Source: Oscillospiraceae bacterium (GTDB taxonomy: Bacteria; Bacillota; Clostridia; Oscillospirales; Oscillospiraceae). From it: DNA of 44,021 bases. A model generated the notes under the pieces. It ran no database searches, was not told where the DNA came from, and was given only the letters and a program-made list of their open reading frames with translations. A program made the position numbers and the translations under genes. Location: positions 1-44,021 of the forward strand of contig JAFSET010000005.1 of NCBI GenBank assembly GCA_017435615.1, written 5' to 3'. Shown here in pieces: positions 19,570 through 42,259 of this stretch; the first letter of the stretch is position 1, and each line of letters begins with the position of its first letter.

Positions 19570-20517
19570 TTACACGACTTGATTACAAAGCTGTCCGCCT
19601 GTCAGACAGGCAACTACATTTTTGGCGCATATCTCACTGACTGCGCTGATCGCTTCTTTGGAGTACATACCGATATGGGGGCTGACCACCACATTGTCAA
19701 GACTCAGCAGGGGGTGATCCGCAGTCATCGGTTCGTTTTCCACCACATCCATGGCCGCACCGTTCAAATGGCCGGACTTCAGGGCTTCGTAAAGGGCTGT
19801 TTCGTTTACAATGCCGCCCCGGGCGGTGTTGATCACATAGCTGCCCTGTTTCATATTGCCCAGTTCCTTTGCACCGATCATATTCTTTGTTTCGTCGGTC
19901 AGTGGCAGATGAACGGACAGAAAATCGCAGCCGGAAATCACTTCATCCAGTCCGCACAGCTTTACAAAACCCTGATATTCCGCAGGCAGCTCTTTTACAT
20001 AGGGGTCATATGCCAAAACCTGCATATCAAAGCCTTTGGCACGGTTTGCGACTTTCCGGGCAATAGCACCGAAGCCTAACAGGCCCAGTGTTTTGCCGCA
20101 AACATCCTCGCCGATATGGCTTTTCCATACACCCTGTCGCACCAGTGCTGCCGAATGGCTGATTTTCCGGGCAACAGAAAGCATCAAGCCAAAGGTCAGA
20201 TCCGCCACTGCGTTGGAATTGGTGCCGGGTGCATTGGTTACCGCAATTCCCAACTGGCTGGCCTTTTCCAAGTGGATGTTATTCAGGCCCACGCCGTGCT
20301 TGCAGATGATCTTCAGGTTGGGGCAGCGCTCCATATCCTTTTCTTCAAATTCGTGAGCACCGATGATCAGCGCGTCAAATTCCGGAATGATCCGTTCAAA
20401 TTCTGCCTGATCAAAGCCCACAGACTTGTTGACGATTTGAACACCGGCATCCAGCAAGATCCGTTCAGCGGTATCTCCGATTTTGCCAAAAGAACGGGAT
20501 GTAATCAAAACCTTCAT
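19570..20517 (-). CDS. D-2-hydroxyacid dehydrogenase (phosphoglycerate dehydrogenase-like)
   Basis: 315 residues, usual family length. The NAD-binding motif is LGLLGFGAIARKVANRA (about 144-160). The catalytic set is complete: R233 in INTARGG, E262 in ENEPM and H281 in SPHIG. Such enzymes interconvert 2-keto acids and D-2-hydroxy acids with NAD(P)H. The ATG at 20517 has GAGGTG 7 bases upstream and starts three bases after the aldolase stop, so the two are one operon. If the aldolase makes pyruvate or glyoxylate, this enzyme could reduce it; a sugar-acid substrate is also possible. Substrate uncertain. Confidence 0.88.
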   Translation of the reverse strand: MKVLITSRSFGKIGDTAERILLDAGVQIVNKSVGFDQAEFERIIPEFDALIIGAHEFEEKDMERCPNLKIICKHGVGLNNIHLEKASQLGIAVTNAPGTNSNAVADLTFGLMLSVARKISHSAALVRQGVWKSHIGEDVCGKTLGLLGFGAIARKVANRAKGFDMQVLAYDPYVKELPAEYQGFVKLCGLDEVISGCDFLSVHLPLTDETKNMIGAKELGNMKQGSYVINTARGGIVNETALYEALKSGHLNGAAMDVVENEPMTADHPLLSLDNVVVSPHIGMYSKEAISAVSEICAKNVVACLTGGQLCNQVV

Positions 20518-20520
20518 CCT

Positions 20521-21174
20521 TTACACCTCTTTCAGCGCATCCGTATATTCCTGTGCCAATGCGGTGATCTCGTCAAAACGGCCTGCGTTTACTAACTCCG
20601 GGCTGACCAGATTTCCGCCAACGCCCACACCGGAAGCACCGGCTTTCAAGAAGTCAACGCAGTTTTTCGCATTGACACCGCCTACGGCTGTAACCGGGAT
20701 ATGTTTCAGGGGGGCCTTTACCGCTTTGATGTAACCGGGGCCCAGTACGCCTGCCGGAAACATTTTGACAATATCCGCACCGCACCGGTATGCATATGCC
20801 ACCTCTGTGGGGGTCATTGCCCCGGGAACAGACACCTTGTCCAACTGCTTGGTTGCATAGATGACCTCCGGTTCGGTATTGGGAGAAATCATATACTCCG
20901 CACCGGCTTCTGCTGCCAAATGCACCTGCTCTACGGTCATGACTGTACCTGCACCAACGCATACCCGGTCGCCCAGTTCCTTTTTAATATTGGCAATTGC
21001 ATCAAGGGTGTTTTGTACCTTTTCAGGGGCAGACTGGTCGAAGGTCACCTCAATACAGGTAATACCGCCGGCAGCCAGTGCCTTTGCCAAATCTGCAATT
21101 TTGCTGCTGTCAATACCGCGCACAATGGCAACGATTTTGCTGTCTAATATTCGCTGTAATACTTCTTTAGACAT
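20521..21174 (-). CDS. eda: KDPG/KHG aldolase-type class I aldolase
   Basis: 217 residues. Features of 2-keto-3-deoxy-6-phosphogluconate / 4-hydroxy-2-oxoglutarate aldolases: VRG (R19), E42 in CIEVTF, GAGTVMT (74-80), PGAMTPTE, and the Schiff-base K137 in VKMFPAG. The reaction splits a 2-keto-3-deoxy sugar acid phosphate into pyruvate and an aldehyde. The position that holds a substrate-binding Arg in E. coli Eda (after EVTL) is Asp here (EVTFD), so specificity may differ. No KDG kinase is in the window. Its promoter carries the GAATATACAATTT box, hinting at co-regulation with the surface enzymes. Confidence 0.85.
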   Translation of the reverse strand: MSKEVLQRILDSKIVAIVRGIDSSKIADLAKALAAGGITCIEVTFDQSAPEKVQNTLDAIANIKKELGDRVCVGAGTVMTVEQVHLAAEAGAEYMISPNTEPEVIYATKQLDKVSVPGAMTPTEVAYAYRCGADIVKMFPAGVLGPGYIKAVKAPLKHIPVTAVGGVNAKNCVDFLKAGASGVGVGGNLVSPELVNAGRFDEITALAQEYTDALKEV

Positions 21175-21211
21175 CCTGTGTTCCTCTTTTCTTATAAAAA
21201 GTCTATAATAA

Positions 21212-21240
21212 AGTATAAAACAGCATTAAATTCTTCACAA
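21212..21240 (-). promoter_or_regulatory. Promoter of the aldolase-dehydrogenase operon
   Basis: TTGTGA (21235-21240), 17 bases, TATACT (21212-21217), about 38 bases before ATG 21174. The regulatory-type box begins two bases upstream of the -35 element. Confidence 0.7.
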
Positions 21241-21242
21241 CG

Positions 21243-21276
21243 GAATATACAATTTATAAATTGCAAAATACAATTC
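21243..21276 (-). promoter_or_regulatory. Candidate activator box upstream of the aldolase promoter
   Basis: GAATATACAATTT starts at 21243. ATACAATTT (21247-21255) is repeated as ATACAATTC (21268-21276), 21 bp apart, as expected for two AraC-type half sites on the same face of DNA. The centre CAATTTATAAATTG (21250-21263) is also a perfect palindrome. Bases 21237-21280 match 30417-30460 at about 36 of 44 positions. Confidence 0.65.
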
Positions 21277-21285
21277 ACATAATGA

Positions 21286-21616
21286 ACGCTCCCAATGGAA
21301 ACCCTTCCATTGGGAGCGTGAGTCTGTCAAAAAAGACTTTTTTGACAGACTGTCAGAGGTCAAGGAAGCGCCAAAGACAAGCAACTCGAGCCTGTCGGCG
21401 TACATAGGTACGGTAAGGCTCGAGTTGTGAAGTAAGTCAAAATGCCTTGCGAAGCAAGCGTTTTTGCTTTTTACCCCACATCCGTCAAAAATCAAAGATT
21501 TTTGCCACCTTCTCCCCAAGGAGAAGGCTATTTTTATATTTGCATACGCATTTTGATGGTTTGGAGGTTCTTTGACACTCTGACGCTCCCAATGGAAACC
21601 CTTCCATTGGGAGCGT
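21286..21616. repeat. Palindrome mosaic bounded by two identical 34-bp hairpins (MITE-like)
   Basis: Identical perfect hairpins (15-bp arms, 4-base loop) lie at 21286-21319 and 21583-21616, in direct orientation. Between them are further palindromes: 21321-21351 (15-bp arms, one-base centre), 21382-21427 (12-bp arms), 21446-21458 (5-bp arms), 21486-21504 (8-bp arms) and 21508-21527 (8-bp arms). There is no transposase and no believable gene. It resembles short non-coding mosaics interspersed in gut Clostridia genomes (general impression). The second 34-bp hairpin starts 5 bases after the isomerase stop and may help end or protect that transcript. Confidence 0.75.
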
Positions 21617-21620
21617 CTAT

Positions 21621-22469
21621 TCAATTTTCTGCCGCAATCAACATTGCAGCAATTCGGCAGGCCCGTTTATAGGCTTCTGCCACATATCGCGCATACGGCA
21701 TTTCGCAGTACAGGTCGTTTTCGTGACGACCGGGCTTTGATTTGAGATTTAATTCAAAGGTAAGAGGGCCTTGGATACCCCATCTGTGCAGGCGTTTGAC
21801 CACATCATCCCAGTCAACAATACCGTCAAAGGGCAGTAAATGCAGATCGTCCAGCCAGGTAATGGTCCCGTCATAAGCCTTAATGCCCAGATTATCATTT
21901 AAATGGGTGCCTAAAAGACGGCTGCCGTACTTGGCAAGCAGATCCTGGGAGTGGTTATAGCACAGCTCGTGTCCGCTGTCCCAGCAGAAGCCTACTGCGT
22001 CATTGTCCGCAAAATAGTCCATCAGGGCTTCCAGGTATTCCTCGCCCTCTGTGTTTTCAAAGGCAATTTGAATTCCCTTTTCCGCAGCATAGTCTACGGC
22101 TTGGGCAAATCTGCTTAAGCCGATTTGGGTCGGCGTATGCTTATCAAAGCCTACAATGGCGTGAACTACCAAAATGGGTGCGCCGCACTGCACACAGGCA
22201 TCGATGCAGGTTCGCAATTCCAGAATACCGGCGTTAGCCTTTTCTTCACTACCGTGCCACATGTCCGCGGCCTTGTCCCAGGGTGCGTGAATAGATTGAA
22301 TGGAAATATCCGCAGCCTGTGCTTGTTCCATCAGTTCTGTCAAATTCAGATCTTTACCCCAGGTTACAAAAAAACCGTCAAAACCCGTTGCCTTTAATAG
22401 TTTAAGCTGGTCGGCAAAGGACATATCTGCCGCCCGGCTCAAATTCATCACCAAATGTTTTTTCCACAT
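21621..22469 (-). CDS. Sugar phosphate isomerase/epimerase-like TIM-barrel protein
   Basis: 282 residues of the xylose-isomerase-like (AP endonuclease 2) superfamily. The metal ligands of that fold are visible: E138 in AFENTEG, D164 and H167 in CWDSGH, H189 in THLND and E239 in TFELN. Members isomerise or epimerise sugars, keto-acids or inositol derivatives; the exact reaction cannot be read. GAGGTG lies about 7 bases before the ATG, and a promoter with the shared box lies at 22490-22533. No signal peptide, so it acts in the cytoplasm, plausibly on the imported sugar, upstream of the aldolase. Confidence 0.82.
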   Translation of the reverse strand: MWKKHLVMNLSRAADMSFADQLKLLKATGFDGFFVTWGKDLNLTELMEQAQAADISIQSIHAPWDKAADMWHGSEEKANAGILELRTCIDACVQCGAPILVVHAIVGFDKHTPTQIGLSRFAQAVDYAAEKGIQIAFENTEGEEYLEALMDYFADNDAVGFCWDSGHELCYNHSQDLLAKYGSRLLGTHLNDNLGIKAYDGTITWLDDLHLLPFDGIVDWDDVVKRLHRWGIQGPLTFELNLKSKPGRHENDLYCEMPYARYVAEAYKRACRIAAMLIAAEN

Positions 22470-22610: not shown

Positions 22611-25600
22611 TTATTCCGGGATATAGCTTTCGGCTGCCTGATGATAGGTGTACATTGCGCTGAGCAATGCCTTCAGGTTCTCGGAAGTGCTGCCATGATA
22701 CATCCGAACGATGTAGTTCATGGGACTGTAGGATACAGTGATCGTGCCATCCTGACTGTCAGTTACCGTCACGGTCACTGCTGCATCCAAATCCTGAGGC
22801 AGGATGTTCGCCACTTCCACATAGTGGGTGTCCTCGTTGGAGATCACATTCAGGGGCTCGCCGTTCCAACTGAAGCTGCAGCCGGCAACATCGCCTTTGA
22901 AGTAGAAGCGGATTGCTGTTTGATTGCGGTGGACCAGACTTGCACCGTAGAAATACAGGCCGGAGATCTTGCCCTCAGCAATCATCTCGGTAGCTGCTAC
23001 TGTGGGCACATCGGCCTCTGTCACTTCCACATCCTTGTCTGCCATGGCATCCAGGTTGTATTGGAAGTAGGTCTGAGCCTTGCCACCGTAGTTCAGCATT
23101 GCCTGGACAAGTGCCTTTACACGATTGCTGTAATCACCGGTCAAAACGGTATCGGCATACTGTCTGACAGAATAGGTCTTTGCCTCACCCACAAGATCAC
23201 CGATGTGCATCTGCAGCATGATCCGGTCTGTCATTTGTGCCGCTGCCAGTTCAACAGTGAAGATGTAATTACCGCTGTCGTCTTTGGGCATATCCTTGGC
23301 TGCCATCTGAACTGTCTGACCTGCCACGGTAACGTACATCACAGCACTGTCAAGCACATCCTCAGAAAGGGCCACATGGAAGTTGGCGGCAATATTATCC
23401 CGCAGGGTCAAATTCCACATTTCGAGGCTGTACGGCAGATAGTAAATGTTATCTGCCGGTGCGGCGCCGTTCATAATGCTCTGCATGGTAGAATCCTGTG
23501 CGCCCAGCTTATTTGCATACTTGGTGCAGGCATCCAGATCCATCAGATAGATGGCAGTATTCTCATCCTCTGCAGGAGGACTATAGCGGCTGTGGGCGTA
23601 CAAGCTCCGGTCCAAGGAGCTGCTGTTGTAGGACATATTGAAGCTGCCGTAGACATAAACGTTGATATTACCGATGACATGACGGTCTGTATCGAAGGTC
23701 CAGTCGCACTGGTTGTAGCAGCCGCCATAGACACGGCGGTTGACCGTGCCGCCCTTCAGGTAGATATTCACATCGCCATCCAAGTTATCGTGCGCCCATT
23801 CATGACCGCCGAAGAGCTGATCGATAACGCCGCCGTTGACGGTAATATTGATGGTGCAGTCATCCACGCCGGGTCCAAAGATATTGCCGCCGTAGACACC
23901 GTAGATCTGACCGCCGTTAATGGTAATATTAGCGTTCTTTACATCGCACCAGTCGCCGGAGCTTCTGCCGGAGCCGCCGCCAAAGAGCTTTGCTGCCTTG
24001 GCGTTGCCCTCAAAGACAACATTGGTCTTAGCAAGGGAACCTCTCCGGGAACCGGCAAAGATGTAGTTCTGCTCGTTGTGGTCAACCGCGGAAATATCCG
24101 GGTTTACATTACCGCCGACAACCAGCTTTGCCTCGCCGGTAACAGTAGTATTGTTACCTGCTCCGCCGCCGTTACCGCCATAAATGCTGTACCAGGTACC
24201 GGCAAGCACCGTCAGGTCCGTGGATGCGACCGTACCGGTGCTGACACCGCCGAAGATCAAAGCGACACCATCCACCGTTACATCAGAATTGATCTTTGTG
24301 GTATGACCATTACAGAAGATTTCTGCATTGTCAGCCACCTTCAGGGTCATATTCTGAAAGGTTACAGGGCTGTTGATATTTACTGTAGACTGTGCACTCA
24401 GATCTATGGTACCGCCGGTAACGGTGACACCCTTGTCGGCTTTATACCATACAAAGTCGGCGGGGACCGCATAGGTGTCTTCAATATGGATGGTACCGCC
24501 GTCAGCCACACGGATCAAGGCTGTATTCAAGGATGCCACGGGGGCGTCCTTGGTGCCCAGGGCCTCATCCTTGCCGTTTGCGCTGACATAAACATCATCC
24601 TGCAGCTTCGCCCAGGTCATGGGGTCGATCTGCTGGTCTGCCAGGGTGATACCGCCGTAGACGCTCAGCGCTGCCATATCACACCAGAAGTTACCGTCAA
24701 AGCTGTGCTCATACATGGCTGTGACCGCAATGGTATGGGTGCCGGCAGTCAGATACTGGGTCCATACGGGATTATTGTTGACAATATAGCCTGTGTTGTC
24801 ACAAACGTACTTGGAATACTTCACGCCGTCCACGATCAGAAGCAGGTGACCCTCGTCCGCATCGGTTCCGGTTTTGGTGACCAGGTGGGTGCCGAGATCG
24901 TAGTAGCCATCCGCGGGAACATTCACGGTGTAGGCCACATAGGGAATGCTGGAAAGTTCATAAATGGGAAGATTCACGCCGTCAAAGGTATAGACCTCTA
25001 CGCCGCCCAGATAGCTGGAACGGTATTCATAACCGGCAGCTTCTGTATTGGACAGGGTATTGACAGTCCACTTGTTTACATACTGGGACTGGGCAGGCAG
25101 CAGATGGTTTACACTGCTTACGATGCCTTCAATTTCACCGGGACCGACAATATCCAGATAGTCATGGTCCATCCAGCTTACCATTGCTGCGTTATCTGCG
25201 GTGCAGGAGATCATACGGATCACATTGCGTCCCTTTACCAATTCCACACGCATGGAAGCCTTGCCTACCAGGTTGGTGACCGCAGTTTCGGCAGCGGCAT
25301 CTCTGGGTGCAAAGGGTACGGTAAACACCTGATCGTTGACGCTGACTGTAAGGTCGTAATCAGCCACGGTGTAGTCGTCTGCGGTTGCCACATTATAAAC
25401 ATAGTCAATGGCGTATGTTCCGGCAGTTTCTACGTTTACCGTATACGTGACCATGGGATGGCCCACAGCGTTGCCCATGCCATTGCCGGCCTGAAGCTGC
25501 TGGAGCGTCATCATCTTGCTGGCATCCTTGGTCATGCCACCTACAACAGAGCCGGAAACCTTATAGCGGTTCAGTACGCCGTGGGTTTCTGCCTGGAGGG

Positions 25601-26102
25601 TGGTCTTGTAGGTGCCTGCATCAATGGAAACGGTCATATCCACAGGATCATTTTCCGTGTCGGTGCCGTCCGTAAAGCACAAAACAGAGCTGACAGTGTA
25701 GTCCAGGGTATCACCGATCTTCACATCGGAGATTATCAGGCTGCAAACGGTAGTGCCGTCTTCCATAGCAACGCCGGAAGCGGTAGGGAAGGCCAGCAGG
25801 GTAACGGTGCCGTCTTCTGCTACCTGGTATTCTACACTCAGATTTTCCACAGAGGTGGTAACTTCCTGAACAGCATTATCCAAAGCGTTCTGCTTGGGCG
25901 TCAGGATCATCTGGACATAGTCCACGGTTTTTCCTTCCGTGACTTCGGAAAGATTGACATTTACTGTGGCCATACTGTCGGCCATGGAGACAAAGGAAAG
26001 TGCGACTGTTCCGTCATTTGTCGCGGAAACTGTAAAGCAAACTACAGCAATCAGAACTGCCACGCAAAGGGCAGCGGTAAAAATCTTATTTTTCAGTTTC
26101 AT
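22611..26102 (-). CDS. Secreted beta-helix surface protein with CBM-like modules
   Basis: 1163 residues. Signal peptide 1-27; a beta-sandwich resembling cohesin or Ig-like domains (about 30-160, low confidence); two galactose-binding-like modules (about 172-318 and 335-495) that are paralogous to modules of the upstream gene (shared GRNVIRMIS / GYNVIRMIS and FWCDMAALSVYG / TWCDMGALTVYG); then a right-handed beta-helix region (about 500-870) starting DVYVSANGKDEALGT, with Gly-rich turns such as INGGQIYGVYGGN. Beta-helices of this type occur in polysaccharide lyases and adhesins; I see no certain active site. The last 270 residues (about 895-1163) are a domain also found at the N-terminus of the 2766-residue protein. 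No LPXTG or SLH motif. It follows the esterase gene by 22 bases. Confidence 0.82.
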   Translation of the reverse strand: MKLKNKIFTAALCVAVLIAVVCFTVSATNDGTVALSFVSMADSMATVNVNLSEVTEGKTVDYVQMILTPKQNALDNAVQEVTTSVENLSVEYQVAEDGTVTLLAFPTASGVAMEDGTTVCSLIISDVKIGDTLDYTVSSVLCFTDGTDTENDPVDMTVSIDAGTYKTTLQAETHGVLNRYKVSGSVVGGMTKDASKMMTLQQLQAGNGMGNAVGHPMVTYTVNVETAGTYAIDYVYNVATADDYTVADYDLTVSVNDQVFTVPFAPRDAAAETAVTNLVGKASMRVELVKGRNVIRMISCTADNAAMVSWMDHDYLDIVGPGEIEGIVSSVNHLLPAQSQYVNKWTVNTLSNTEAAGYEYRSSYLGGVEVYTFDGVNLPIYELSSIPYVAYTVNVPADGYYDLGTHLVTKTGTDADEGHLLLIVDGVKYSKYVCDNTGYIVNNNPVWTQYLTAGTHTIAVTAMYEHSFDGNFWCDMAALSVYGGITLADQQIDPMTWAKLQDDVYVSANGKDEALGTKDAPVASLNTALIRVADGGTIHIEDTYAVPADFVWYKADKGVTVTGGTIDLSAQSTVNINSPVTFQNMTLKVADNAEIFCNGHTTKINSDVTVDGVALIFGGVSTGTVASTDLTVLAGTWYSIYGGNGGGAGNNTTVTGEAKLVVGGNVNPDISAVDHNEQNYIFAGSRRGSLAKTNVVFEGNAKAAKLFGGGSGRSSGDWCDVKNANITINGGQIYGVYGGNIFGPGVDDCTINITVNGGVIDQLFGGHEWAHDNLDGDVNIYLKGGTVNRRVYGGCYNQCDWTFDTDRHVIGNINVYVYGSFNMSYNSSSLDRSLYAHSRYSPPAEDENTAIYLMDLDACTKYANKLGAQDSTMQSIMNGAAPADNIYYLPYSLEMWNLTLRDNIAANFHVALSEDVLDSAVMYVTVAGQTVQMAAKDMPKDDSGNYIFTVELAAAQMTDRIMLQMHIGDLVGEAKTYSVRQYADTVLTGDYSNRVKALVQAMLNYGGKAQTYFQYNLDAMADKDVEVTEADVPTVAATEMIAEGKISGLYFYGASLVHRNQTAIRFYFKGDVAGCSFSWNGEPLNVISNEDTHYVEVANILPQDLDAAVTVTVTDSQDGTITVSYSPMNYIVRMYHGSTSENLKALLSAMYTYHQAAESYIPE

Positions 26103-32912: not shown

Positions 32913-33830
32913 CTACATGGCTTCGGCGGTAATGATACCGTCCTGAAAATGGAGCTTGCAGATCCGGGCGGTTCTTTGATCACCTGTGAGCAGGGGATGG
33001 GGGTCAAGATCTCTTGCGTGATAGACAGCGTAGTACTGTCCCTCATAACAGATCACGCTATTATGCCCCACGCCTTCTTCCACACGGTTTTTGGTCATCA
33101 GTGGCGCAAAGCAACCGTGATCGGTATGCTTTTCAAAAACGACCTTTGTCAGATCGGGTTCTGTGCTTTTTGCTGCCGCGTAACCGATGTGATAGGTATC
33201 GTTTTGGTAGCAGGCACCGCTGTACATCACGTACTGCCAGCCGTCCACCTGAAGCCAGAAAGGACCTTCAATGGTGTGCCAGTGCTGACCCGGCTGAAAC
33301 CGGTCACACATGAAGATCTCCTCGTCAAAGGAGGGCTTGACTGCCTCTACCGCAGTGCCGGTCAAGGTCATGGGATCGGCCATCTTCTGCACAAAAATCC
33401 GGGTGCCCACTCTGTGAGTTTCGGTTCTGTCCATGCAGTACCACAGATAGAGTCCTGCGTCTGTTCGCACCACATGTGGATCAATACTGAAGCAGTCACA
33501 CAAGCACTTCAGCTCGTTGAAAGGACCAAAGGGGCTGTCTGATTTTGCCACATACAGGTATTCCTTGGCGTCTTCTGTGCCCGTTTCTCTGCAGGAAACA
33601 TACAGATAATAGAACCCATCTTCATAGTACATACAAGGTGCCCAGTATTCCCGGTAGCCTTCTTTCTGACAGACGATCCCTTTGTACTGCCACTGTCCGA
33701 AGGGGGAGTCGCAGTAGTATGCACCTACACCCTCCGCACCGGTCACATATATTGCCCAGCCGTCCTGTACTTTACACATAAACGGATCCGGCTGTGCCTG
33801 GATATGATTGTTTGTAAAACGAATTTTCAT
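32913..33830 (-). CDS. GH43-family glycoside hydrolase, cytoplasmic
   Basis: 305 residues from ATG 33830 (MKIRFTNNHIQAQPDPF), with AAAGGA upstream; the in-frame ATG at 33848 would lie on that site. The five-bladed propeller residues of GH43 are visible: D15 in QPDPF (base), D117 in SIDPHVV (pKa modulator) and E188 in IEGPF (acid). Other family signs: YYLYVSCRETG, and GHNSVICYEGQYYAVYHAR near the C-terminus. There is no signal peptide, so it should act on imported oligosaccharides, typically as a beta-xylosidase or alpha-L-arabinofuranosidase. It lies 65 bases after the giant-protein gene, past a hairpin. Confidence 0.88.
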   Translation of the reverse strand: MKIRFTNNHIQAQPDPFMCKVQDGWAIYVTGAEGVGAYYCDSPFGQWQYKGIVCQKEGYREYWAPCMYYEDGFYYLYVSCRETGTEDAKEYLYVAKSDSPFGPFNELKCLCDCFSIDPHVVRTDAGLYLWYCMDRTETHRVGTRIFVQKMADPMTLTGTAVEAVKPSFDEEIFMCDRFQPGQHWHTIEGPFWLQVDGWQYVMYSGACYQNDTYHIGYAAAKSTEPDLTKVVFEKHTDHGCFAPLMTKNRVEEGVGHNSVICYEGQYYAVYHARDLDPHPLLTGDQRTARICKLHFQDGIITAEAM

Positions 33831-33862
33831 ATCATTTTCCTTTATCATACAGCTTTTTGCGT

Positions 33863-33888
33863 GCCTGGGCAGCGGAAACTGCCCAGGC
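33863..33888 (-). terminator. Hairpin after the giant-protein gene
   Basis: A 10-bp stem (33863-33872 with 33879-33888, GCCTGGGCAG) and 6-base loop, 8 bases past the stop at 33896. No T tract follows on the minus strand, so it may be a partial terminator or a transcript-stabilising stem. Confidence 0.55.
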
Positions 33889-33895
33889 ATTTGTG

Positions 33896-36800
33896 TTAGC
33901 GGTTTGCCATGACTGCGATTTCGGAAACAGCATACTGTGCATCGGATGCAGGCATGACGATCTCAATGGCAACCACCTTCAAGGTTGTAAACGACAGGCA
34001 AACACCGCTGCCGGGAACGGTAGCAGACTCAACAGCCAGATCGTTGAAGGTAATATAGCCGCCACCCACAAGCTGCAGCCGGATGGACGCAACGCTGCTG
34101 AACAGGTGCTCGTAGCCGTTATGGATGGCAATGCCGTTGATGGCGGCAGCCTCGTTGAACTGTAGCTTCACGGTGGTAGAGCTGCCGTCGAACAGGGCAT
34201 CCTGCAGGAAGCTGCTTTCGTGATGGAGGATCAATCCGTCGGTCATAGCCTCTGCAGAGCCCTCTGCAAGATGATCGGCTGTGACAGTGGCGGAGGCTGC
34301 GATGTTCCGGAAGCCGTCTGTGGTCAAGGGCATAGCCGCCACAGAAGGACCATTTGCTACAGGCACCAGCAGACCGTTTGCGTTTTCCACCCAGTGCAGC
34401 TCATCCACAGCAATGCCACGGATAAGAGCCTCATCGGTCTGCTCTTTATGGGCGTGGTAGACGATGTAGTCCTGTCCGTTGCGGGAAACCACGCTGCAGT
34501 GGCCGGTGCCGGCTGTCAAGTCGTTTTCTGCATACAGCAGCCAGCCACCCTCTTCCTGAGTCAGCTTGGTGAAAGGACCGACAGGGCTGTCAGCAACGGC
34601 TACTCTGACGCAATAGCTCTGCTGATAGAAAGCGTTGGCAGAGTACAGCATGTAATATTTGCCGGACTCGGCGTTATAAACCACAAAGGGAGCTTCATTG
34701 ACCTTGCCCTCGCTGAGGCTGCTGTCCGCCTCAGTCAATGCGTGGACCTGGGAATAATCGGGGGTATAATCGTCGTTAAGCGCAATTACATAGATGCTGG
34801 ATTTGGTGATGCCCAGCTCTGCAGCATGGTCATGGCAGAAATACATGTACTTCTTGCCGCTGACAGGATCAACGAAGGGGCTCATATCGATGACCTTCAT
34901 ATAGCCGTTGGTGCCGGCTTCGTACAGAGGATCCTCCGGATCCATGTTGGCAAAGTCAAACACAGGGGCATAGGCGAGAGTCTTGGCTTCTTCGTCGAGA
35001 ACTACCGGTTCCTTGCCGAAGTATTGATGATAGGCTACAAAGGGGCCGGCAGGGGAGGGGGACACTGCGATATCGGCATAGAACCGGGTAACACCGTCTT
35101 CCTGCCGGGTTGCGCTGTAGAACAGATAGTAAAGATCGGTATCGGCGTCGTAGATGACTTCCGGTGCCCAGTAATCAGCAGACAGATAAGAAACGGTCGT
35201 GTAGCCGGTAGCTTCATCGTACTGCTCAAAGGCGCTGAGCGCTGTGCCGACGCACTCCCACTGCACCATGTCACGGGAACGATAAGCAAGGAAGCCTGCT
35301 GCGCCAAGGTCGTCAGAGGTTACATACATATAGTAGTAGCCTGCTTCCTCACCCTCGGAAACATAGATCACAGAGGGGTCTGCGCCTTCGGTTTGCAGTG
35401 TGTTTTGATAAGACTTTGCCGCGCTGTTGTTTGCGGAAGACGTGTTTACCAAATAGCTTTCGGCAGCTTCCTGGGTTTCAAACACCTGTGCGGACAGGTT
35501 TTCCACGACGGTGGTGCCGATGTTGAAGCCGGTAAACTTTACCTGACTGTGTGTCATGGAAACACGGTCGCTGGCATAGACGATGACGCCGTCAAGCAGG
35601 AAATACACATTGCTGTTGATCACAACCAGTTCAAAGTTAAGGCTGTTGCGTGTGCCGTTTTCCTGCTCACCGGAAATTAACTGCCATACATCCCAGGCTT
35701 CCTGGGAAGCCTTGGACATGGAGAAGATCTGATAGTTGCCGGAGGGTACTTTTTCCAATGCGATGAAATGCTCGTTCTGTGCATCGGAGGATACGAGAAT
35801 TCTTGCCTGTCCCCAGTCCTGTGCGTCGGTGAGAGTCAGTGTTCCGCTTACACGGTAGAGATCCTCCCGCAGGGCATAACCGCCTCGGGTCAGATCGTCC
35901 ACCAAATGTTGGGCATCCGAATCTGTGGTCAGGGTAAAGCCGTTATTCTCGGTTTCTGCGAAATAGTTGCAGGTCAAGCCGATCGCGGTGGCATCTGCTA
36001 CAGCGCTGTCAGCACAGATGCCTGCGGACACCTTGTAATTGCCGGCAGTCAGCACTGTGTTGAAGGAGAAAATGCCAACAGCGCCCTTCTCGGCCTTGAA
36101 ACCGGCATCGTCGTACATGACCAGTACATCGTTCACATAGAAGAAGTAGGCTTTTCCGTCACGGATCAGCTTCAGCTTGACGGTATCACTGCCGGCGAAG
36201 GACATGCCCGGAACCTCGCAGGATTTGGAGCCTGCCCAATCGTCTCCGCCGCCGGTGGGCTGATAGACGACGCCCACATGGGTGGCAGTCAGGGAGGGGG
36301 TCATATCCACGAAGAATTTGACCATTTCGCTGGCACCGTTGACCATCAGGCCGAACTTGGGCCAGCCGTCGTTGTTCAGAACGCTTTCCACATTGATCTG
36401 TGTTTCAAAGCAGAAGCGGTCGGTATAGACATCGTTCAGGTATGCATACTGGGGTGCGCCGCCGTAGACACGGATGGAGGGTGCTTCGCCGTTGTCAGCA
36501 GACAGATCCACTTCTGCGGAGGTTCCGTAGGTCACGCCGTCGTATGCGGCATAGCCAAACAGATCACCCTTGTTCCGCTCAGCTTCCGGGATCAAAGCAG
36601 CCTTTGCGTCCAGGTCATCCTGAGAAACGCTGGTAAAGTACTCTGTAATTGTCAGGCCGGTATTGAAGCTGAAAATGCCCACGACTGCATCTGCGGTCAT
36701 ATCCCAAACGCCGGAAAGCGCATAATTACCGTTGACAAACAGATGAACACGCTTTCCCTGCTTCAGGATCGCCAGTGTCACGGTTTCGCCTTCACCGGAG

Positions 36801-39800
36801 AATGCCATATCCGCAACAGTGGCGCTCTTGGAGTTGGCCCAGTCGTAGTTGCCGTTTACGCTGGTTACGGCACCCACAACGCCGGAAGTCAGCTCTGTGG
36901 TCATATCCACATAGAAGCTGCGACGCTGAGCCTCATTTTCCAGGAACATACCAAATTTGGGATAGCTTTCCGTATCGGCAATGCCGTTGACATGCAGCTT
37001 GGCTTCAAAATAGAAGTTTTCTGCATAGAAATCATCCACATAGCCCAGCGCAATGCCGTTTTCCGATACGGTAACGGTACCGGTGTTGGCACCGTTGTCG
37101 GCGGTGAGGTCAAACTGCTCAGAGGTCTTAAATTGGCCGTTTTGACCGAAGAAAGCATCGTCATATTGGAAGATCTGCTCATAAAGGTGCGCGGAGAAAA
37201 CGGCATAGCCGGCCTCGTTCATATGCACCAAATCCGTGCTGAACAGCTCTGTATTGGAGTTGAGCTTGTCATCGGTGACCATCAGGTCAAACACATCAAT
37301 GCCCTGCACATACGCAAGGCTTTCGCAAAGGGCCTTGCTGCCCTCTACCAGTGCGCCCAGCTTTGCGGGGGTATAAATACCGTTGCTGTAGGCACTGGGA
37401 CTGGGCGTGGTGTAGATGTAGTAGATTTCTGCATAGGGATGGTCGGCATGGAGCTTTTCGAAGAGGGTCTGCAGCCGCTGTACGACCACTTCACCGTCGT
37501 CACCCCAGACATTGACATCATTGCCGCCAACCAGGATCACAAAGCGATCGGCTTCAAAGGGCTTGATGAGCTGATCGTAGGCGTGGAGCCAATCCAGTGT
37601 GGTGGAGCCGCCGATACCCACATTGTAGCCGGTATCATACTTGACAAGGCCTGTCTGTGCCTCCCAGGTGCTCCAGAAGTCCATGTTGGAGTCACCGAAG
37701 ATCAAGGTACCGCCCTTACCGGCGCAATTGTTTTCGGTGATGTACTCGGCGTACAGGCTGTCCATACGGCTCTGGAAGCGGCTGACATAGTCCTTTTGGC
37801 TCTTGGTTGCCAAATAACTGTCAGCAGCTTCGCCGGTTTCAAAAATCTGCACTGCCAGATTTTCCACAGTGGTCTTACCGGTATTGTAACCGGTGAACTT
37901 GACGGTGCTTTCCGTCATGGAAACACGCTGGCTTTCATAGCAGATCTTGTCATCGATCAGCAGCGTAATATGACTGCCGTTGACGATCACTTCAAAATCA
38001 ATGGCATTGCGGCTGCCGTTGACTTCCACATGCTCGATCAGCCGCCAATCATTCCAGTTGCTCTCCATTGCCTTGGACATGGTGAAGATCTGGAAGTTTT
38101 CGCCGATCTTTTCCAGCGCAATGAAATACTCGTTTTCCGCGTCGGAGGAAACAAGAATTCTTGCCTGACCCCAGTCAGCGGCGTTTGTCAGGGAAATCGT
38201 ACCCTGAACGCTGTAATAGGGGACCTTCAGAATTTCACCGTCATACAAAACGTCGTCCACCATGTGCTGAGCCGCCGAATTGGTGGTCAGGGTATAAACG
38301 CCGTCCTGCGTTTCTGTAAAGTAATTGGTAGATAGGGAAACGCCTTCCGGTTTATCCTGTACGGACTCGATTTCCTGATACAGTTCCGGGATGGTATTGT
38401 AGAATTCCCGCAGATCCCGGGCGTTATCATAGACATAGCTGTTGATCTGATGGTAAGGTGCGCAGCAGAATACCACCTGGGTTCCCATCAGACCGGCTGC
38501 GGTGCGGTAAGGTCTGCTGGCGGCACCGGCGCAGTTGTAGAAGAAGGGAACATTCAGCTCCTGCTGCAGGACCATATTGGTTTGCAGGGCTTCTTCCAAA
38601 TCGGAAGTGCTTGCCAAAACGATCTTGGCAATGTCCGCGCCGCGGTTTTCCATTTCCTTGGCCAGGGCAACACCCTGTGCCTGGTTCATGGCAACGCCCA
38701 CATGGGCAGACATCAAAATCTCCACATTGGGGTTGATCTGCCGCAGCTCCGCCATAAATGCCTGCTGCTGTGCAATGACATCGGCATCCATGGATACTTC
38801 CTTGGGTGCAGGAATTTCAAATACAGTGCCTTTATAGCTTGCCTTGCAGGCATCATAGGAAACACTGTAGGTATCCATGGGAATATCTACGGCATCAAAG
38901 CCTGCTTCCACAGCCATGCGCCACAGGTTCAGCCGTGCTTCCAAATTATCATAGTTGCCGTAGGCCAGCGCCATCACCGGGTACTGTGTGCAATCGGCGA
39001 TCCGCTTCAGGTTTTCCACGGTCCGCTCGGATGCAGCCAGTGTTGTCAAATAAACGATGAAGCCGGTGGCACCGTCAGCCTCTTCCTTTTGGATGGTGGT
39101 GACGATATCATCCACAGTGCTCAGGGAAATGCTGCCGGTAACAATGGGGGCTTTTTGTGTGGTAAAGCCGGAAACATCGGCAGGGGAGTAGTCTGTCAGG
39201 TCATTACCGTTTTCGTCGGTAACGGTCACCGGGATGGCGCAGATCTGATCATTGACGATCACAGACACTGCAGGCACATCCGCAGAAAGCACGGTGGGTG
39301 CCAGCAGATAATCCTGCTGGCTCAGTGCTACCTTGTTGCCGTTAGCATCCATGCCTGTAACTACCAAACCGGTGGCATCAAAGGTCTCACCCAACTGATA
39401 GGTGGTCTTTTCAGGCATTTGTGTAATCTCGATATCGGTCACACCGGCTACCGGCTCTACCGGGAGGGTCTTACCGGAGTAGAACAGCGGTACGCCCCAG
39501 CGTCCCCAAGTCACGGTTTCGCCCACGGTGACATCCTTTTCGTACAGTGCAAAGCCCATAGCCGCGAAGTTGCCGCCGCCGTAGCCGGTACCGCCCCAGG
39601 GCTCAAAGTCCAGGTCCATCACATGGGTAAAGCCCACATCCAGGTACTTCTGTCCATTGGCTTCATTTCTACCGATCAGGTAAAGCTTACCGGCCTTGGT
39701 GACAGTAGCGGAGCCACCGTTCAGGGGCGCACACAGGAAGCTCTTGCCTGCCATCCAGTAGGGGATGGTGTGGTAGTAGTAAGCGCTTTGATCGGAGAAC

Positions 39801-42196
39801 ACCTGCTGCTTCAGCCCCACAGGCGCGGAGGCATAGGTGTCGGACTGGATCACAGCCAGTTCGTTGCCGGGAACGGTAACGCCGTTATGGGACAGATCCA
39901 GCTGTGTCTCGGAGCCGATCAGCACGCCCCACCACGGATCCAGCTGAATTCGCTCACCGGTGGTAACCTTCAGCTCGTAGACCCAGGTGTTCCGCTTGAC
40001 GGAATAATCCGCAAAGGTCCACTGGGGCAGCTCCAGCCGTTTAAAGTCATAGTTGTCAACGCCGGAAGCAAAATTACTGTCGGTACGGGGATGGGTGATC
40101 ACATAGAAATAACCATCTGTGCCGGCGGTCACATCTACGCCGCCGCTGATGCTGCCGTAGAGATATTCCTGACCGATCAGGTTTGCAGGCATACTGATGA
40201 AGGTATAGTCCATGGTCTCATCGTTCCATATCCGTTCGCCAATAGCAACCGTTTTTACGGTGGTGCTGTCATTGGGCATCAACAGGGGATACAGATTCAG
40301 ACGGTCCCGGGATACTACCACGATGGCCCAGCTTGTGTCGATGGTGATCTGCTCGCCGGGGGTTACAGCCCGTTCGTATACCAAGGTGTTAATGGGGTTG
40401 GAGTAATTTGCCAGACACCAGTCCTCGGCAATATTCAGCTTCGTAAAGCCGGAGCCTTCTGCCAGGATATTATCCGGGAAGTTGGCGTGGGTGGTGGGGG
40501 GAGTCAGGACATACAGATAGCCGTTTTGCAGAACGGTCATATCGATCTGGGTGTTGAACTTTCCGTAGATATAAGACTGTCCGATCAGCTCCTCGGGAAG
40601 CTCCGTAAAGGTAAAGCCTCTGCCGTTCCAAAGCTTTGCACCCAGTGCCAAATCTTCCAAAGTGTAGCTGCTGCTGTCCTGCAGGATCTGATTTCTCTGC
40701 TGGTTAAAGACCTCAGCATCCGCCTTAGCCTGTGCCAAGATTTCCTCGTAGGCAGCATCCTCTGCCGCCACGGAATACTCTGTCAGGGTCAGCTCTGTGC
40801 CGAAGCTGAAGAAACCGGCTCCACCAATTTCGTCCGTCAGGTCACTGCCGGCAAGCACCATGGCACCGTTGACATAGAAATAATAGTTCACACCGTCACG
40901 GACCAGCTTCAATGTAACTGTTTGCGCGCTCAGGTCCAGTGCTTCGGACAGGGTGTTCACAGCCTGGTAGGCCCAGTCGTCACTCTTGCCGGTGGCCTGA
41001 TGGACAGCACCTACCTGAGAAACCTGCAGCAGGGGCGTCATATCCAAATAGAACTTGACCATTTCTGTTTGGCCGTTCACCAACATACCCAGCTTGGGAT
41101 AGTTCTCGTTTTCAATCACGCTATTTACCTGCACTGTGGTCTCAAAACTGAAGTTTTGGGTGTTCAGGTCTGCAATATAGGTATAAAGGGGTGTTGCCTT
41201 GTGCGCGTCCAGCACCAAATAGGGGGCTTCACCGCAATCTGTAGTCAGATCGATCACCGGGCTGGAGGTAAAGCCTCCGGCATTGCCGAAGAACATACCT
41301 TCATTTTCCACATATTCCATTGCGGCAGCGTGATAGGCGTATAGCGCATTGAGCAATGCCTTCAGCTGTGTGCTGCCCTTTTCGCTCATGCGGATGATGT
41401 AGTTTAAGGGGTTGTAGGAAACGCTCAGGGACTCCTCGCCCTTGGAGGCAGTCAGAACGATGCTCTTTGCATAGTCCTGGGGATTGATGCCCGGAACCTC
41501 CACATAGAACATGTCGTTCTTGGCTACTGCGTCATATGTTGCACCGTTTGCGGTGAAGGATACACCTTCTGTGCTGTTGGCTGCAAAATAATAACGAACA
41601 GCAATCTTGGATTCAAAAACAAGGGATGCACCGTAAAAACGGACACCTTCCAGTTCACCGTGGATTGCCATGGCGTCATACTCCGCAGGAAGCTGAACGG
41701 CTTCGGCAACATAGCCTGCATTGGCCAGGTTATCGGTGTTTACACCGAAGTAATTCTGTGCCGCTGCACCGTAGTTCAGCATACGAAGCACCAAATTCTT
41801 GGTTTTGGTGGGATAGTTGCCGGTCAAAAGCACGACAGCGTAATCCCGGATGGAGTAGGTCTTTTGCAAAACGCTCTCATCATTCTGCAGAAAATCCAGG
41901 GTAATGGCCTCGGTCATTTGCGCCGCTGCCAGCTTGGCAGGGATCACATACTGACCGTCGCTGTTGGGGGTCATAGTGCTCAGGTCGTGAGCCGTGGTTT
42001 TGTCACTGACGGTGACATTGACCACGGTGCCTTCCTCAGCGGTGACATAAAAATGCATAGTTAAGTCATCGCCCAGGTTGAGCTGCTGGGAGACGACTTC
42101 CGGTGTGGCGGCTTCTGCAGCAAATGCGCTGACAGGAAGCATGCTGAGCACCATGATCATCGCCATCAGCAGCGACAAAAGTTTTGTGCGCTTCAT
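33896..42196 (-). CDS. Giant secreted multi-enzyme protein (DHQase-like, SGNH esterase, GH43)
   Basis: 2766 residues from ATG 42196 (MKRTKLLSLL), TGAGG 8 bases upstream. Signal peptide 1-26. Order: domain shared with the 22611-26102 protein (about 30-300); LamG-like module (about 310-480); three related repeats of about 110-130 residues (500-905); Ig-like Big_3-type domain (920-1000, ITQMPEKTTYQLGETFD); type I dehydroquinate dehydratase-like barrel (1017-1280; H1165, K1191, R1228, Q1250); beta-sandwich (1285-1465); SGNH esterase (S1503 in IFGDSNM, VGGNDV, D1655 and H1658 in STDLVHMN); two LamG-like modules (about 1690-2060); beta-sandwich (2070-2250); GH43 domain (D2273, D2443, E2501); C-terminal F5/8-like module (2630-2766). 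It probably deacetylates and cleaves a decorated glycan outside the cell. No LPXTG, SLH or dockerin is visible. Confidence 0.85.
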   Translation of the reverse strand: MKRTKLLSLLMAMIMVLSMLPVSAFAAEAATPEVVSQQLNLGDDLTMHFYVTAEEGTVVNVTVSDKTTAHDLSTMTPNSDGQYVIPAKLAAAQMTEAITLDFLQNDESVLQKTYSIRDYAVVLLTGNYPTKTKNLVLRMLNYGAAAQNYFGVNTDNLANAGYVAEAVQLPAEYDAMAIHGELEGVRFYGASLVFESKIAVRYYFAANSTEGVSFTANGATYDAVAKNDMFYVEVPGINPQDYAKSIVLTASKGEESLSVSYNPLNYIIRMSEKGSTQLKALLNALYAYHAAAMEYVENEGMFFGNAGGFTSSPVIDLTTDCGEAPYLVLDAHKATPLYTYIADLNTQNFSFETTVQVNSVIENENYPKLGMLVNGQTEMVKFYLDMTPLLQVSQVGAVHQATGKSDDWAYQAVNTLSEALDLSAQTVTLKLVRDGVNYYFYVNGAMVLAGSDLTDEIGGAGFFSFGTELTLTEYSVAAEDAAYEEILAQAKADAEVFNQQRNQILQDSSSYTLEDLALGAKLWNGRGFTFTELPEELIGQSYIYGKFNTQIDMTVLQNGYLYVLTPPTTHANFPDNILAEGSGFTKLNIAEDWCLANYSNPINTLVYERAVTPGEQITIDTSWAIVVVSRDRLNLYPLLMPNDSTTVKTVAIGERIWNDETMDYTFISMPANLIGQEYLYGSISGGVDVTAGTDGYFYVITHPRTDSNFASGVDNYDFKRLELPQWTFADYSVKRNTWVYELKVTTGERIQLDPWWGVLIGSETQLDLSHNGVTVPGNELAVIQSDTYASAPVGLKQQVFSDQSAYYYHTIPYWMAGKSFLCAPLNGGSATVTKAGKLYLIGRNEANGQKYLDVGFTHVMDLDFEPWGGTGYGGGNFAAMGFALYEKDVTVGETVTWGRWGVPLFYSGKTLPVEPVAGVTDIEITQMPEKTTYQLGETFDATGLVVTGMDANGNKVALSQQDYLLAPTVLSADVPAVSVIVNDQICAIPVTVTDENGNDLTDYSPADVSGFTTQKAPIVTGSISLSTVDDIVTTIQKEEADGATGFIVYLTTLAASERTVENLKRIADCTQYPVMALAYGNYDNLEARLNLWRMAVEAGFDAVDIPMDTYSVSYDACKASYKGTVFEIPAPKEVSMDADVIAQQQAFMAELRQINPNVEILMSAHVGVAMNQAQGVALAKEMENRGADIAKIVLASTSDLEEALQTNMVLQQELNVPFFYNCAGAASRPYRTAAGLMGTQVVFCCAPYHQINSYVYDNARDLREFYNTIPELYQEIESVQDKPEGVSLSTNYFTETQDGVYTLTTNSAAQHMVDDVLYDGEILKVPYYSVQGTISLTNAADWGQARILVSSDAENEYFIALEKIGENFQIFTMSKAMESNWNDWRLIEHVEVNGSRNAIDFEVIVNGSHITLLIDDKICYESQRVSMTESTVKFTGYNTGKTTVENLAVQIFETGEAADSYLATKSQKDYVSRFQSRMDSLYAEYITENNCAGKGGTLIFGDSNMDFWSTWEAQTGLVKYDTGYNVGIGGSTTLDWLHAYDQLIKPFEADRFVILVGGNDVNVWGDDGEVVVQRLQTLFEKLHADHPYAEIYYIYTTPSPSAYSNGIYTPAKLGALVEGSKALCESLAYVQGIDVFDLMVTDDKLNSNTELFSTDLVHMNEAGYAVFSAHLYEQIFQYDDAFFGQNGQFKTSEQFDLTADNGANTGTVTVSENGIALGYVDDFYAENFYFEAKLHVNGIADTESYPKFGMFLENEAQRRSFYVDMTTELTSGVVGAVTSVNGNYDWANSKSATVADMAFSGEGETVTLAILKQGKRVHLFVNGNYALSGVWDMTADAVVGIFSFNTGLTITEYFTSVSQDDLDAKAALIPEAERNKGDLFGYAAYDGVTYGTSAEVDLSADNGEAPSIRVYGGAPQYAYLNDVYTDRFCFETQINVESVLNNDGWPKFGLMVNGASEMVKFFVDMTPSLTATHVGVVYQPTGGGDDWAGSKSCEVPGMSFAGSDTVKLKLIRDGKAYFFYVNDVLVMYDDAGFKAEKGAVGIFSFNTVLTAGNYKVSAGICADSAVADATAIGLTCNYFAETENNGFTLTTDSDAQHLVDDLTRGGYALREDLYRVSGTLTLTDAQDWGQARILVSSDAQNEHFIALEKVPSGNYQIFSMSKASQEAWDVWQLISGEQENGTRNSLNFELVVINSNVYFLLDGVIVYASDRVSMTHSQVKFTGFNIGTTVVENLSAQVFETQEAAESYLVNTSSANNSAAKSYQNTLQTEGADPSVIYVSEGEEAGYYYMYVTSDDLGAAGFLAYRSRDMVQWECVGTALSAFEQYDEATGYTTVSYLSADYWAPEVIYDADTDLYYLFYSATRQEDGVTRFYADIAVSPSPAGPFVAYHQYFGKEPVVLDEEAKTLAYAPVFDFANMDPEDPLYEAGTNGYMKVIDMSPFVDPVSGKKYMYFCHDHAAELGITKSSIYVIALNDDYTPDYSQVHALTEADSSLSEGKVNEAPFVVYNAESGKYYMLYSANAFYQQSYCVRVAVADSPVGPFTKLTQEEGGWLLYAENDLTAGTGHCSVVSRNGQDYIVYHAHKEQTDEALIRGIAVDELHWVENANGLLVPVANGPSVAAMPLTTDGFRNIAASATVTADHLAEGSAEAMTDGLILHHESSFLQDALFDGSSTTVKLQFNEAAAINGIAIHNGYEHLFSSVASIRLQLVGGGYITFNDLAVESATVPGSGVCLSFTTLKVVAIEIVMPASDAQYAVSEIAVMANR

Positions 42197-42259
42197 CGTA
42201 TGTTTCCTCACTTTCGTTTTTTGGTAAGACTTTTGCCTGGAAAAGCAATGGTATACTCA

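What the first reader, a model, noticed from the sequence alone, without database searches (positions are those of the whole stretch)
38340..39150. Type I dehydroquinate dehydratase-like barrel inside a secreted giant protein
Residues about 1017-1280 match the order of type I DHQase motifs: H1165 (MSAHVG), K1191 (AKIVLAS), R1228 (ASRPY), Q1250 (APYHQI). The H-to-K distance is 26 (27 in the Salmonella enzyme, H143/K170) and R-to-Q is 22 (23 in the family). The carboxylate-binding ELR and the TFR/E segments are not kept. A shikimate-pathway fold beside SGNH and GH43 domains outside the cell suggests a new Schiff-base enzyme, perhaps acting on a sugar acid or quinate ester of plant material.
Basis: partly seen in the sequence, partly recalled or inferred. 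Interest (0 to 1): 0.8.

Follow-up and report, generated by a model that had tools for sequence, protein, structure and literature searches.

The report
Secreted dehydroquinase-like barrel in wall-degrading protein
A giant secreted protein of a gut bacterium carries, between parts of a kind that cut plant fibre, a relative of a shikimate-pathway enzyme that still has the lysine and histidine needed for catalysis but has lost residues that recognise the usual substrate, so it may be an uncharacterised enzyme working outside the cell.

Summary
The observation largely holds. Residues 1010-1280 of a 2771-aa, probably secreted protein (window 38372-39184, minus strand) are homologous to type I dehydroquinase: a profile of 38 relatives matches solved type I DHQases along the barrel (E 8.7e-19) and an AroD profile at 99.2% (0 of 30 column-shuffled controls above 50%). 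His1170 and Lys1196 align with H143/K170 and are invariant in 62 of 62 relatives. AroD's E-x-R and TFR residues are lost. The domain is not AroD: it nests in a family of standalone DHQase-like proteins of Clostridia, mostly beside an AraC regulator and dehydrogenases. The secreted form was found in the own genome and two named Oscillospiraceae MAGs only, each time near SGNH and GH43 modules, and against one of them it is the slowest-evolving measured part of its protein (dN/dS 0.062). Best reading: an active Schiff-base lyase recruited for extracellular glycan breakdown.

The parts
33896..42211 (-). Giant protein P0001, 2771 aa (GTG start; the internal ATG at 42196 is the likelier start, by eye)
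   Evidence: intact ORF; upstream sequence
42113..42196 (-). Signal-peptide-like N-terminus, residues 6-33
   Evidence: read from the translation; no signal-peptide program was run
38372..39184 (-). DHQase-I-like domain, residues 1010-1280
   Evidence: PF01487 27.2 bits on the isolated stretch; family profile vs PDB and AroD; bounds by alignment
38702..38704 (-). His1170, aligned with AroD H143 (general base)
   Evidence: 62 of 62 relatives and 3 of 3 AroD; position
38624..38626 (-). Lys1196, aligned with AroD K170 (Schiff-base lysine)
   Evidence: 62 of 62 relatives and 3 of 3 AroD
38504..38506 (-). Arg1236, aligned with AroD R213
38798..38800 (-). Glu1138, aligned (after an insertion) with AroD E86
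   Evidence: 60 of 62 relatives, 3 of 3 AroD; equivalence in space not tested
38429..38431 (-). Tyr1261 at the position of AroD Q236; Gln in 56 of 62 relatives
   Evidence: Tyr in 4 of 4 secreted copies
39308..39415 (-). Big_3 Ig-like domain, residues 933-968
   Evidence: PF07523, 28.2 bits
39437..40669 (-). About three repeats (by eye), residues 515-925, upstream of the DHQase-like domain; similar stretches recur with the second domain copy in RGIG7458
   Evidence: no Pfam match at E 0.01, no convincing PDB match
37199..37699 (-). SGNH/GDSL esterase domain, residues 1505-1671, with GDS, GGND and DxVH motifs (motif names recalled)
   Evidence: PF13472 61.4 bits; motifs
34385..35404 (-). GH43 domain, residues about 2270-2609
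   Evidence: PF04616 112.7 bits; PDB 4qqs 7.9e-24
32913..33890 (-). Neighbour gene: GH43, 325 aa
   Evidence: PF04616 97.7 bits
42361..44016 (-). Neighbour gene: SGNH esterase, 551 aa (contig ends at 44021)
   Evidence: PF13472 53.1 bits

Best explanation
The domain is a TIM-barrel enzyme of the type I dehydroquinase superfamily, taken from a family of standalone, probably cytosolic proteins of Clostridia and built into a secreted, multi-domain protein that works on plant cell-wall carbohydrate. Shown: homology; retention of His, Lys, Arg and a near-invariant Glu; loss of AroD substrate contacts; one clade for the secreted form; strong purifying selection; linkage with SGNH and GH43. Inferred: fold and secretion; that Lys1196 forms an imine with a ketone or aldehyde of a sugar-derived substrate, that His1170 (with Glu1138 taking the part of E86) removes the neighbouring proton, and that a beta hydroxyl or alkoxyl leaves, so that the domain acts as an extracellular dehydratase or beta-eliminating lyase while its partners remove esters (SGNH) and side chains (GH43).
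For: Family profile vs PDB: the first 16 of 22 listed sequences, and 19 of 22 in all, are DHQases or AROM; top E 8.7e-19 over profile 10-246 of 253. hhalign to AroD 99.2%, E 1.8e-19, 230 columns; 0 of 30 column-shuffled controls exceeded 50%. H1170, K1196, R1236, S1168, D1109, D1193 in 62 of 62 and E1138 in 60 of 62 relatives, three fragments dropped. The four secreted copies form one 100/100 clade inside the standalone family, and the second copy in RGIG7458 (53% identical) keeps these residues. Against SIG476 the domain is 92% identical with dN/dS 0.062, the lowest of the 11 regions with a defined ratio; SGNH 0.124, GH43 0.099. The own genome and RGIG7458 have a type II AroQ for the shikimate step. 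In both named MAGs the giant gene lies among ABC permease and GH43 genes near an AraC gene. Of 46 standalone family genes in 44 fetched stretches, 34 have AraC, 29 an MDR dehydrogenase and 25 an SDR within six genes, as expected for oxidation followed by elimination. In Candida Aro1, loss of the catalytic dyad goes with loss of activity (PMC9074039, passages); here the dyad is kept.
Against: No structure or assay. The secreted clade alone gives only weak links: hhalign 93.5% over 91 columns, PDB best E 0.24; the N-terminal half is tied to DHQase only through the standalone relatives. The secreted copies lost the Gln kept by 56 of 62 relatives. Only the own genome and two named MAGs carry it, and the own MAG is 76.6% complete. 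In SIG476 (82% complete as G1437) no type II AroQ was found and its only type I matches are the secreted domain and a standalone paralogue, so there the shikimate step is unaccounted for. No source of a keto-sugar outside the cell is known here; the dehydrogenases stand beside the standalone relatives, not the secreted form. Against RGIG7458 the domain's ratio (0.111) is not the lowest measured (one stretch 0.075, dS 2.70).
Confidence: 0.6

Rival explanations
1. A non-catalytic barrel: the domain is kept as a carbohydrate-binding or spacer module and the active site is a relic.
For: It sits among several stretches without a known catalytic domain. AroD substrate contacts are lost, and the Gln kept by 56 of 62 relatives is Tyr.
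Against: The catalytic positions are kept in 4 of 4 secreted copies, including one only 53% identical, and against SIG476 the domain is the most constrained measurable part of the protein. The dead Candida DHQase domains lost catalytic residues (PMC9074039, passages).
Confidence: 0.25
2. A genuine 3-dehydroquinate dehydratase or quinate-pathway enzyme, for example acting on quinate freed from esters outside the cell.
For: Same superfamily, same catalytic dyad, an esterase domain in the chain; no AroQ found in SIG476.
Against: E-x-R and TFR are replaced (I1052, Y1054, G1085) and Q236 is Tyr; TIGR01093 18.4 bits vs cut-off 139.3; AroQ is present in the own genome and RGIG7458; the protein looks secreted. 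A quinate dehydrogenase was not searched for.
Confidence: 0.05
3. A Schiff-base enzyme that is not a lyase, for example an aldolase-like or epimerising enzyme on aldose reducing ends.
For: The lysine of a TIM barrel can serve retro-aldol chemistry (recalled), and the family profile also touches an archaeal aldolase (2qjg, E 2.6e-5).
Against: Lysine, histidine and arginine are in DHQase register; the aldolase match covers only profile 23-102, without the catalytic residues.
Confidence: 0.1

Closest known systems
Type I 3-dehydroquinate dehydratase (AroD, PF01487, TIGR01093)
   Same: Homologous along the barrel; His143, Lys170 and Arg213 positions kept; E86 possibly matched by E1138 after an insertion
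   Different: E46/R48, R82 and Q236 positions changed; about 27 extra residues before E1138; in a signal-peptide-bearing chain with SGNH and GH43; far below the AroD equivalog cut-off (18.4 vs 139.3 bits)
Standalone DHQase-I-like proteins of Clostridia, without a named family here (27 of 391 class genomes above 160 bits, own included)
   Same: Direct relatives, 18-35% identity to the window domain; the same invariant residues; the sister of the secreted clade is the standalone protein of G516 (L020)
   Different: Standalone, no evident signal peptide (by eye), mostly beside AraC, MDR and SDR genes; 56 of 62 family rows have Gln in the last loop, the secreted ones Tyr and L020 Lys
Levoglucosan / 3-keto-sugar pathway (LgdA/B1/B2/C; passages of PMC7676230)
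   Same: Same logic as proposed for the standalone relatives: oxidise a sugar C3 hydroxyl, then beta-eliminate
   Different: LgdB1 and LgdB2 are described there as annotated sugar phosphate isomerase(/epimerase) proteins, not DHQase-like
Candida albicans Aro1 DHQase domain (passages of PMC9074039)
   Same: DHQase-I domain inside a large multi-domain protein, with a type II enzyme for the shikimate step
   Different: That domain lost catalytic residues and is inactive; here they are kept

Membership tests
DHquinase_I superfamily (PF01487) | Score over the curated Pfam cut-off (22.2 bits) | tested here: met
   27.2 bits for the isolated stretch, but 19.3 bits (below) within the whole protein; 21.2, or 28 with its neighbours in the frame, in the genome search; four standalone relatives 32.5 to 60.3 bits, 4 of 4
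DHquinase_I superfamily (PF01487) | Profile-level similarity over the whole barrel | tested here: met
   A3 vs 2gpt profile 10-246 of 253, E 8.7e-19; A3 vs AroD 230 columns; the secreted clade alone covers 91 columns only
DHquinase_I superfamily (PF01487) | (beta/alpha)8 barrel fold | not testable with these tools
   structure prediction switched off; inferred from homology
Type I DHQase (AroD) | Schiff-base Lys170 and His143 | tested here: met
   K1196 and H1170, 62 of 62 relatives, aligned with 3 of 3 AroD
Type I DHQase (AroD) | Glu86 partner of His143 | tested here: inconclusive
   E1138 aligns with it after an insertion, 60 of 62; position in space unknown
Type I DHQase (AroD) | Arg213 | tested here: met
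   R1236, 62 of 62
Type I DHQase (AroD) | E46, R48 and R82 substrate contacts (numbers and roles recalled) | tested here: not met
   I1052, Y1054, G1085 in the window; Glu, Arg, Arg in 3 of 3 AroD
Type I DHQase (AroD) | SAPGQ loop with Gln236 | tested here: not met
   Tyr1261; Gln in 3 of 3 AroD and 56 of 62 relatives
Type I DHQase (AroD) | NCBIfam TIGR01093 equivalog cut-off 139.3 | tested here: not met
   18.4 bits
Type I DHQase (AroD) | Dehydration of 3-dehydroquinate | not testable with these tools
   needs an assay

The most novel reading that the evidence does not exclude
A lysine/Schiff-base lyase of the dehydroquinase superfamily that works outside the cell on carbohydrate: it makes an imine with an oxidised (for example 3-keto) or reducing-end sugar unit and breaks a glycosidic or ether bond by beta-elimination. 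This would be a chemistry unlike the polysaccharide lyases I know of (recalled), with a large standalone sister family running the same step on oxidised plant compounds inside the cell.
Probability: 0.22. Interest if true: 0.85.

Novelty: new variant of a known kind. Interest (0 to 1): 0.6.

Why it matters
If active, it would be a shikimate-type Schiff-base enzyme recruited to extracellular fibre breakdown. It also points to a sizeable family of dehydroquinase-like proteins in Clostridia that fall in the DHquinase_I family of Pfam and so could be taken for AroD. The gene pattern (dehydrogenases plus a Schiff-base eliminase) gives a directly testable hypothesis for anaerobic dehydroxylation or lysis of oxidised plant compounds.

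Tried and rejected
Housekeeping AroD: rejected; the domain misses the equivalog cut-off and a type II AroQ is present in the own genome and in RGIG7458. Against this, none was found in SIG476 (82% complete as G1437). Chimeric assembly: unlikely; a similar architecture occurs in MAGs SIG476 and RGIG7458. Phage relatives: none in 50,697 phage records by tblastn at E 1e-5, and none confirmed among 16 pattern matches in viral contigs (one pattern). ConA-like neighbours as 3-keto-disaccharide hydrolases: one sub-threshold match in another giant protein of SIG476 (23.0 vs 26.8 bits), none for the window's own stretches, so not claimed. A constant glycoside hydrolase beside the standalone relatives: of 10 large neighbours scanned, 3 were GHs (GH3, GH10, GH2), 2 had SLH domains, 3 were others (CHB_HEX_C/Fn3_assoc, Phe-tRNA synthetase, SpoIIE) and 2 had no match. 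Literature: in the listings of ten searches I saw no title or abstract start on a secreted or GH-fused DHQase-like domain or on this gene neighbourhood; lists were capped, and only open-licence PMC papers are held.

Full report
What is there. The minus-strand ORF 33896-42211 encodes an intact 2771-aa protein that starts with a signal-peptide-like segment (read by eye). Pfam finds Big_3 (933-968), an SGNH/GDSL esterase (1505-1671, 61.4 bits) and GH43 (112.7 bits), and a weak type I dehydroquinase match at 1152-1251 (19.3 bits, below the 22.2 cut-off). Given alone, the 296-residue stretch scores 27.2 bits, above the cut-off. NCBIfam aroD gives 18.4 bits against a cut-off of 139.3. A single-sequence search of the PDB gives only E 0.08, to a DHQase.

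Relatives. One pattern-based scan of genome contigs (84,980 species by the tool's description) returned two loci, both MAGs named Oscillospiraceae: SIG476 (L002, 90%) and RGIG7458 (L003, 81%, with a second copy of the domain in the same protein, about 52%). The RGIG7458 protein is 3505 aa and carries the domain at 882-1144 and 2311-2570. Whole-genome searches: 3 of 300 genomes of the family, own included; 4 of 61 of the genus, of which two carry the secreted form, the own genome and G1437, whose matches lie at the very places of those of SIG476, so the two are most likely one genome; 35 of 394 of the order at E 1e-8, where every match but the own one lies in an open frame of at most 369 aa; 3 of 398 of the phylum with the secreted-clade profile; 38 of 391 of the class with the wider profile, 27 of them above 160 bits and 11 at or below 50 bits. 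Three of the low scorers were inspected and carry the AroD motifs. So there is a distinct family of standalone DHQase-like proteins, up to four matches per genome, and the secreted form is rare.

Homology test. The 38-sequence family profile A3 finds DHQases in the PDB first (first 16 of 22 listed, 19 of 22 in all), from E 8.7e-19 over profile positions 10-246; an archaeal aldolase (2qjg) follows at 2.6e-5 over positions 23-102. hhalign against three AroD sequences gives 99.2%, E 1.8e-19, 230 columns; the secreted clade alone gives 93.5%, 2.2e-7, 91 columns, and in the PDB only E 0.24. Thirty column-shuffled controls for each alignment never passed 50% probability, best scores 18.7 and 21.2 against 132.1 and 54.4.

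Active site. Over 62 family sequences (three fragments dropped) the positions G1104, D1109, Q1149, S1168, H1170, D1193, K1196 and R1236 are invariant; E1138 is Glu in 60 and Gln in 2. D1109, E1138, S1168, H1170, D1193, K1196 and R1236 are also found in 3 of 3 AroD; G1104 and Q1149 are not. M-CSA lists Glu, His and Lys as the type I catalytic set, with Glu86 and His143 named (PMC11796326, passages), and a Schiff base on Lys170 with a flexible His143 is described in PMC4114755 (passages). The AroD E-x-R positions are I1052 and Y1054 here (Asn and His in the second RGIG7458 copy); the residue after Y1084, Arg in 3 of 3 AroD and in 29 of 62 relatives, is Gly1085. The AroD Gln236 column is Gln in 56 of 62 relatives but Tyr in 4 of 4 secreted copies. 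The residue numbers and roles of these AroD contacts are recalled; two primary papers were not held.

Origin. In two maximum-likelihood trees the four secreted domains form one 100/100 clade nested among standalone proteins, with G516's standalone protein (L020) as sister (100/98 and 100/96). SIG476's genome also has a standalone paralogue.

Shikimate step. A type II AroQ is present in the own genome and RGIG7458. In SIG476 none was found (for G1437, 82% complete), and the type I matches of SIG476 are the secreted domain and the standalone paralogue. So in one of three genomes the housekeeping enzyme is unaccounted for; an incomplete MAG is the simplest reason.

Context of the standalone family. 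Around 46 family genes in the 44 stretches that I fetched (part of all matches), within six genes on either side, there is an AraC regulator for 34, a zinc/PIG3-type dehydrogenase for 29, an SDR for 25, a Gfo/Idh/MocA protein for 18 and an epimerase-like protein for 15 (clusters by BLAST, representatives identified; contig ends make these lower bounds). No signal peptide is evident in the standalone proteins after the likely start (by eye and hydropathy). This suggests oxidation of an alcohol to a ketone followed by Schiff-base elimination, as in the quinate route (recalled) or, chemically, the levoglucosan route (oxidation, beta-elimination, hydration, reduction; PMC7676230, passages). This is inference.

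Context of the secreted form. In the window the giant gene is followed by a GH43 gene and preceded by an SGNH gene at the contig end; further along lie GH30, DUF5696, ABC permeases, binding proteins, an AraC regulator, a KDPG-type aldolase, a 2-hydroxyacid dehydrogenase and an AP_endonuc_2 protein. These other window genes are not conserved beside the giant gene in the two MAGs, apart from distant ABC permease, AraC and SGNH matches. In SIG476 the giant gene follows GH43, binding protein, an SGNH giant, two ABC permeases and a GH43 giant on one strand, with an AraC-like gene divergent. RGIG7458 has similar permeases and AraC-like gene and a GH43-bearing 1595-aa protein next to the giant gene; its protein has no match to the window's GH43 part. 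DHQ, SGNH and GH43 modules therefore lie together in all three, though not always in one chain.

Selection. Against SIG476 the DHQ-like domain is 92% identical with dN/dS 0.062; the other ten regions with a defined ratio run from 0.099 to 0.263, and the N-terminal part was saturated. Against RGIG7458 it is 84% identical with 0.111; one ConA-like stretch is lower (0.075, dS 2.70), and several stretches could not be measured. An inactive relic would not be expected to be the best-kept part. In Candida Aro1, dead DHQase domains have lost catalytic residues (PMC9074039, passages).

Verdict. Homology to type I dehydroquinase: about 0.95. Active Schiff-base enzyme: about 0.65. Lyase or dehydratase on a sugar-derived carbonyl: about 0.4. 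Membership in AroD proper: rejected.

Noticed in passing
Class and order genomes, e.g. L042, L050, L052, L056, L058, L104, L110: A sizeable standalone DHQase-I-like family in Clostridia, up to four matches per genome, mostly beside AraC, SDR, zinc or PIG3-type MDR, Gfo/Idh/MocA and epimerase-like genes.
   Followed up: partly
L003 / L108 (RGIG7458), protein at L108:5578-16095: A 3505-aa homologue with two DHQase-like domains; stretches similar to the upstream region of P0001 (207-1307) recur with the second copy, which suggests a functional unit.
   Followed up: partly
SIG476 genome (G1088, also G1437): No type II dehydroquinase was found, and the only type I matches are the secreted domain and a standalone paralogue; possibly MAG incompleteness (82%).
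   Followed up: partly
window 7676-10012: DUF5696 protein (484.6 bits) between an ABC permease gene and an NHL/Yip1 protein, with GH30 nearby; its function is not known.
   Followed up: no
window 19570-22469: 2-hydroxyacid dehydrogenase, KDPG/KHG-type aldolase and AP_endonuc_2 protein close together, suggesting an intracellular sugar-acid route in the same cluster.
   Followed up: no
window 22611-26102: 1163-aa secreted-looking protein without a Pfam match at E 0.001; its C-terminal part resembles by eye the N-terminal region of P0001.
   Followed up: no
L117:1628-9958 (SIG476): 2776-aa giant protein with SGNH, metallophosphoesterase, laminin-G-like and a sub-threshold 3-keto-disaccharide hydrolase match (23.0 vs 26.8 bits).
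   Followed up: partly
window 35426-36574, 36572-37150, 37772-38347 and 40709-41281: Five ConA-like (name by eye) stretches of two types in P0001, without a Pfam match at E 0.01; a profile of three of them has no PDB match at E 1.
   Followed up: partly
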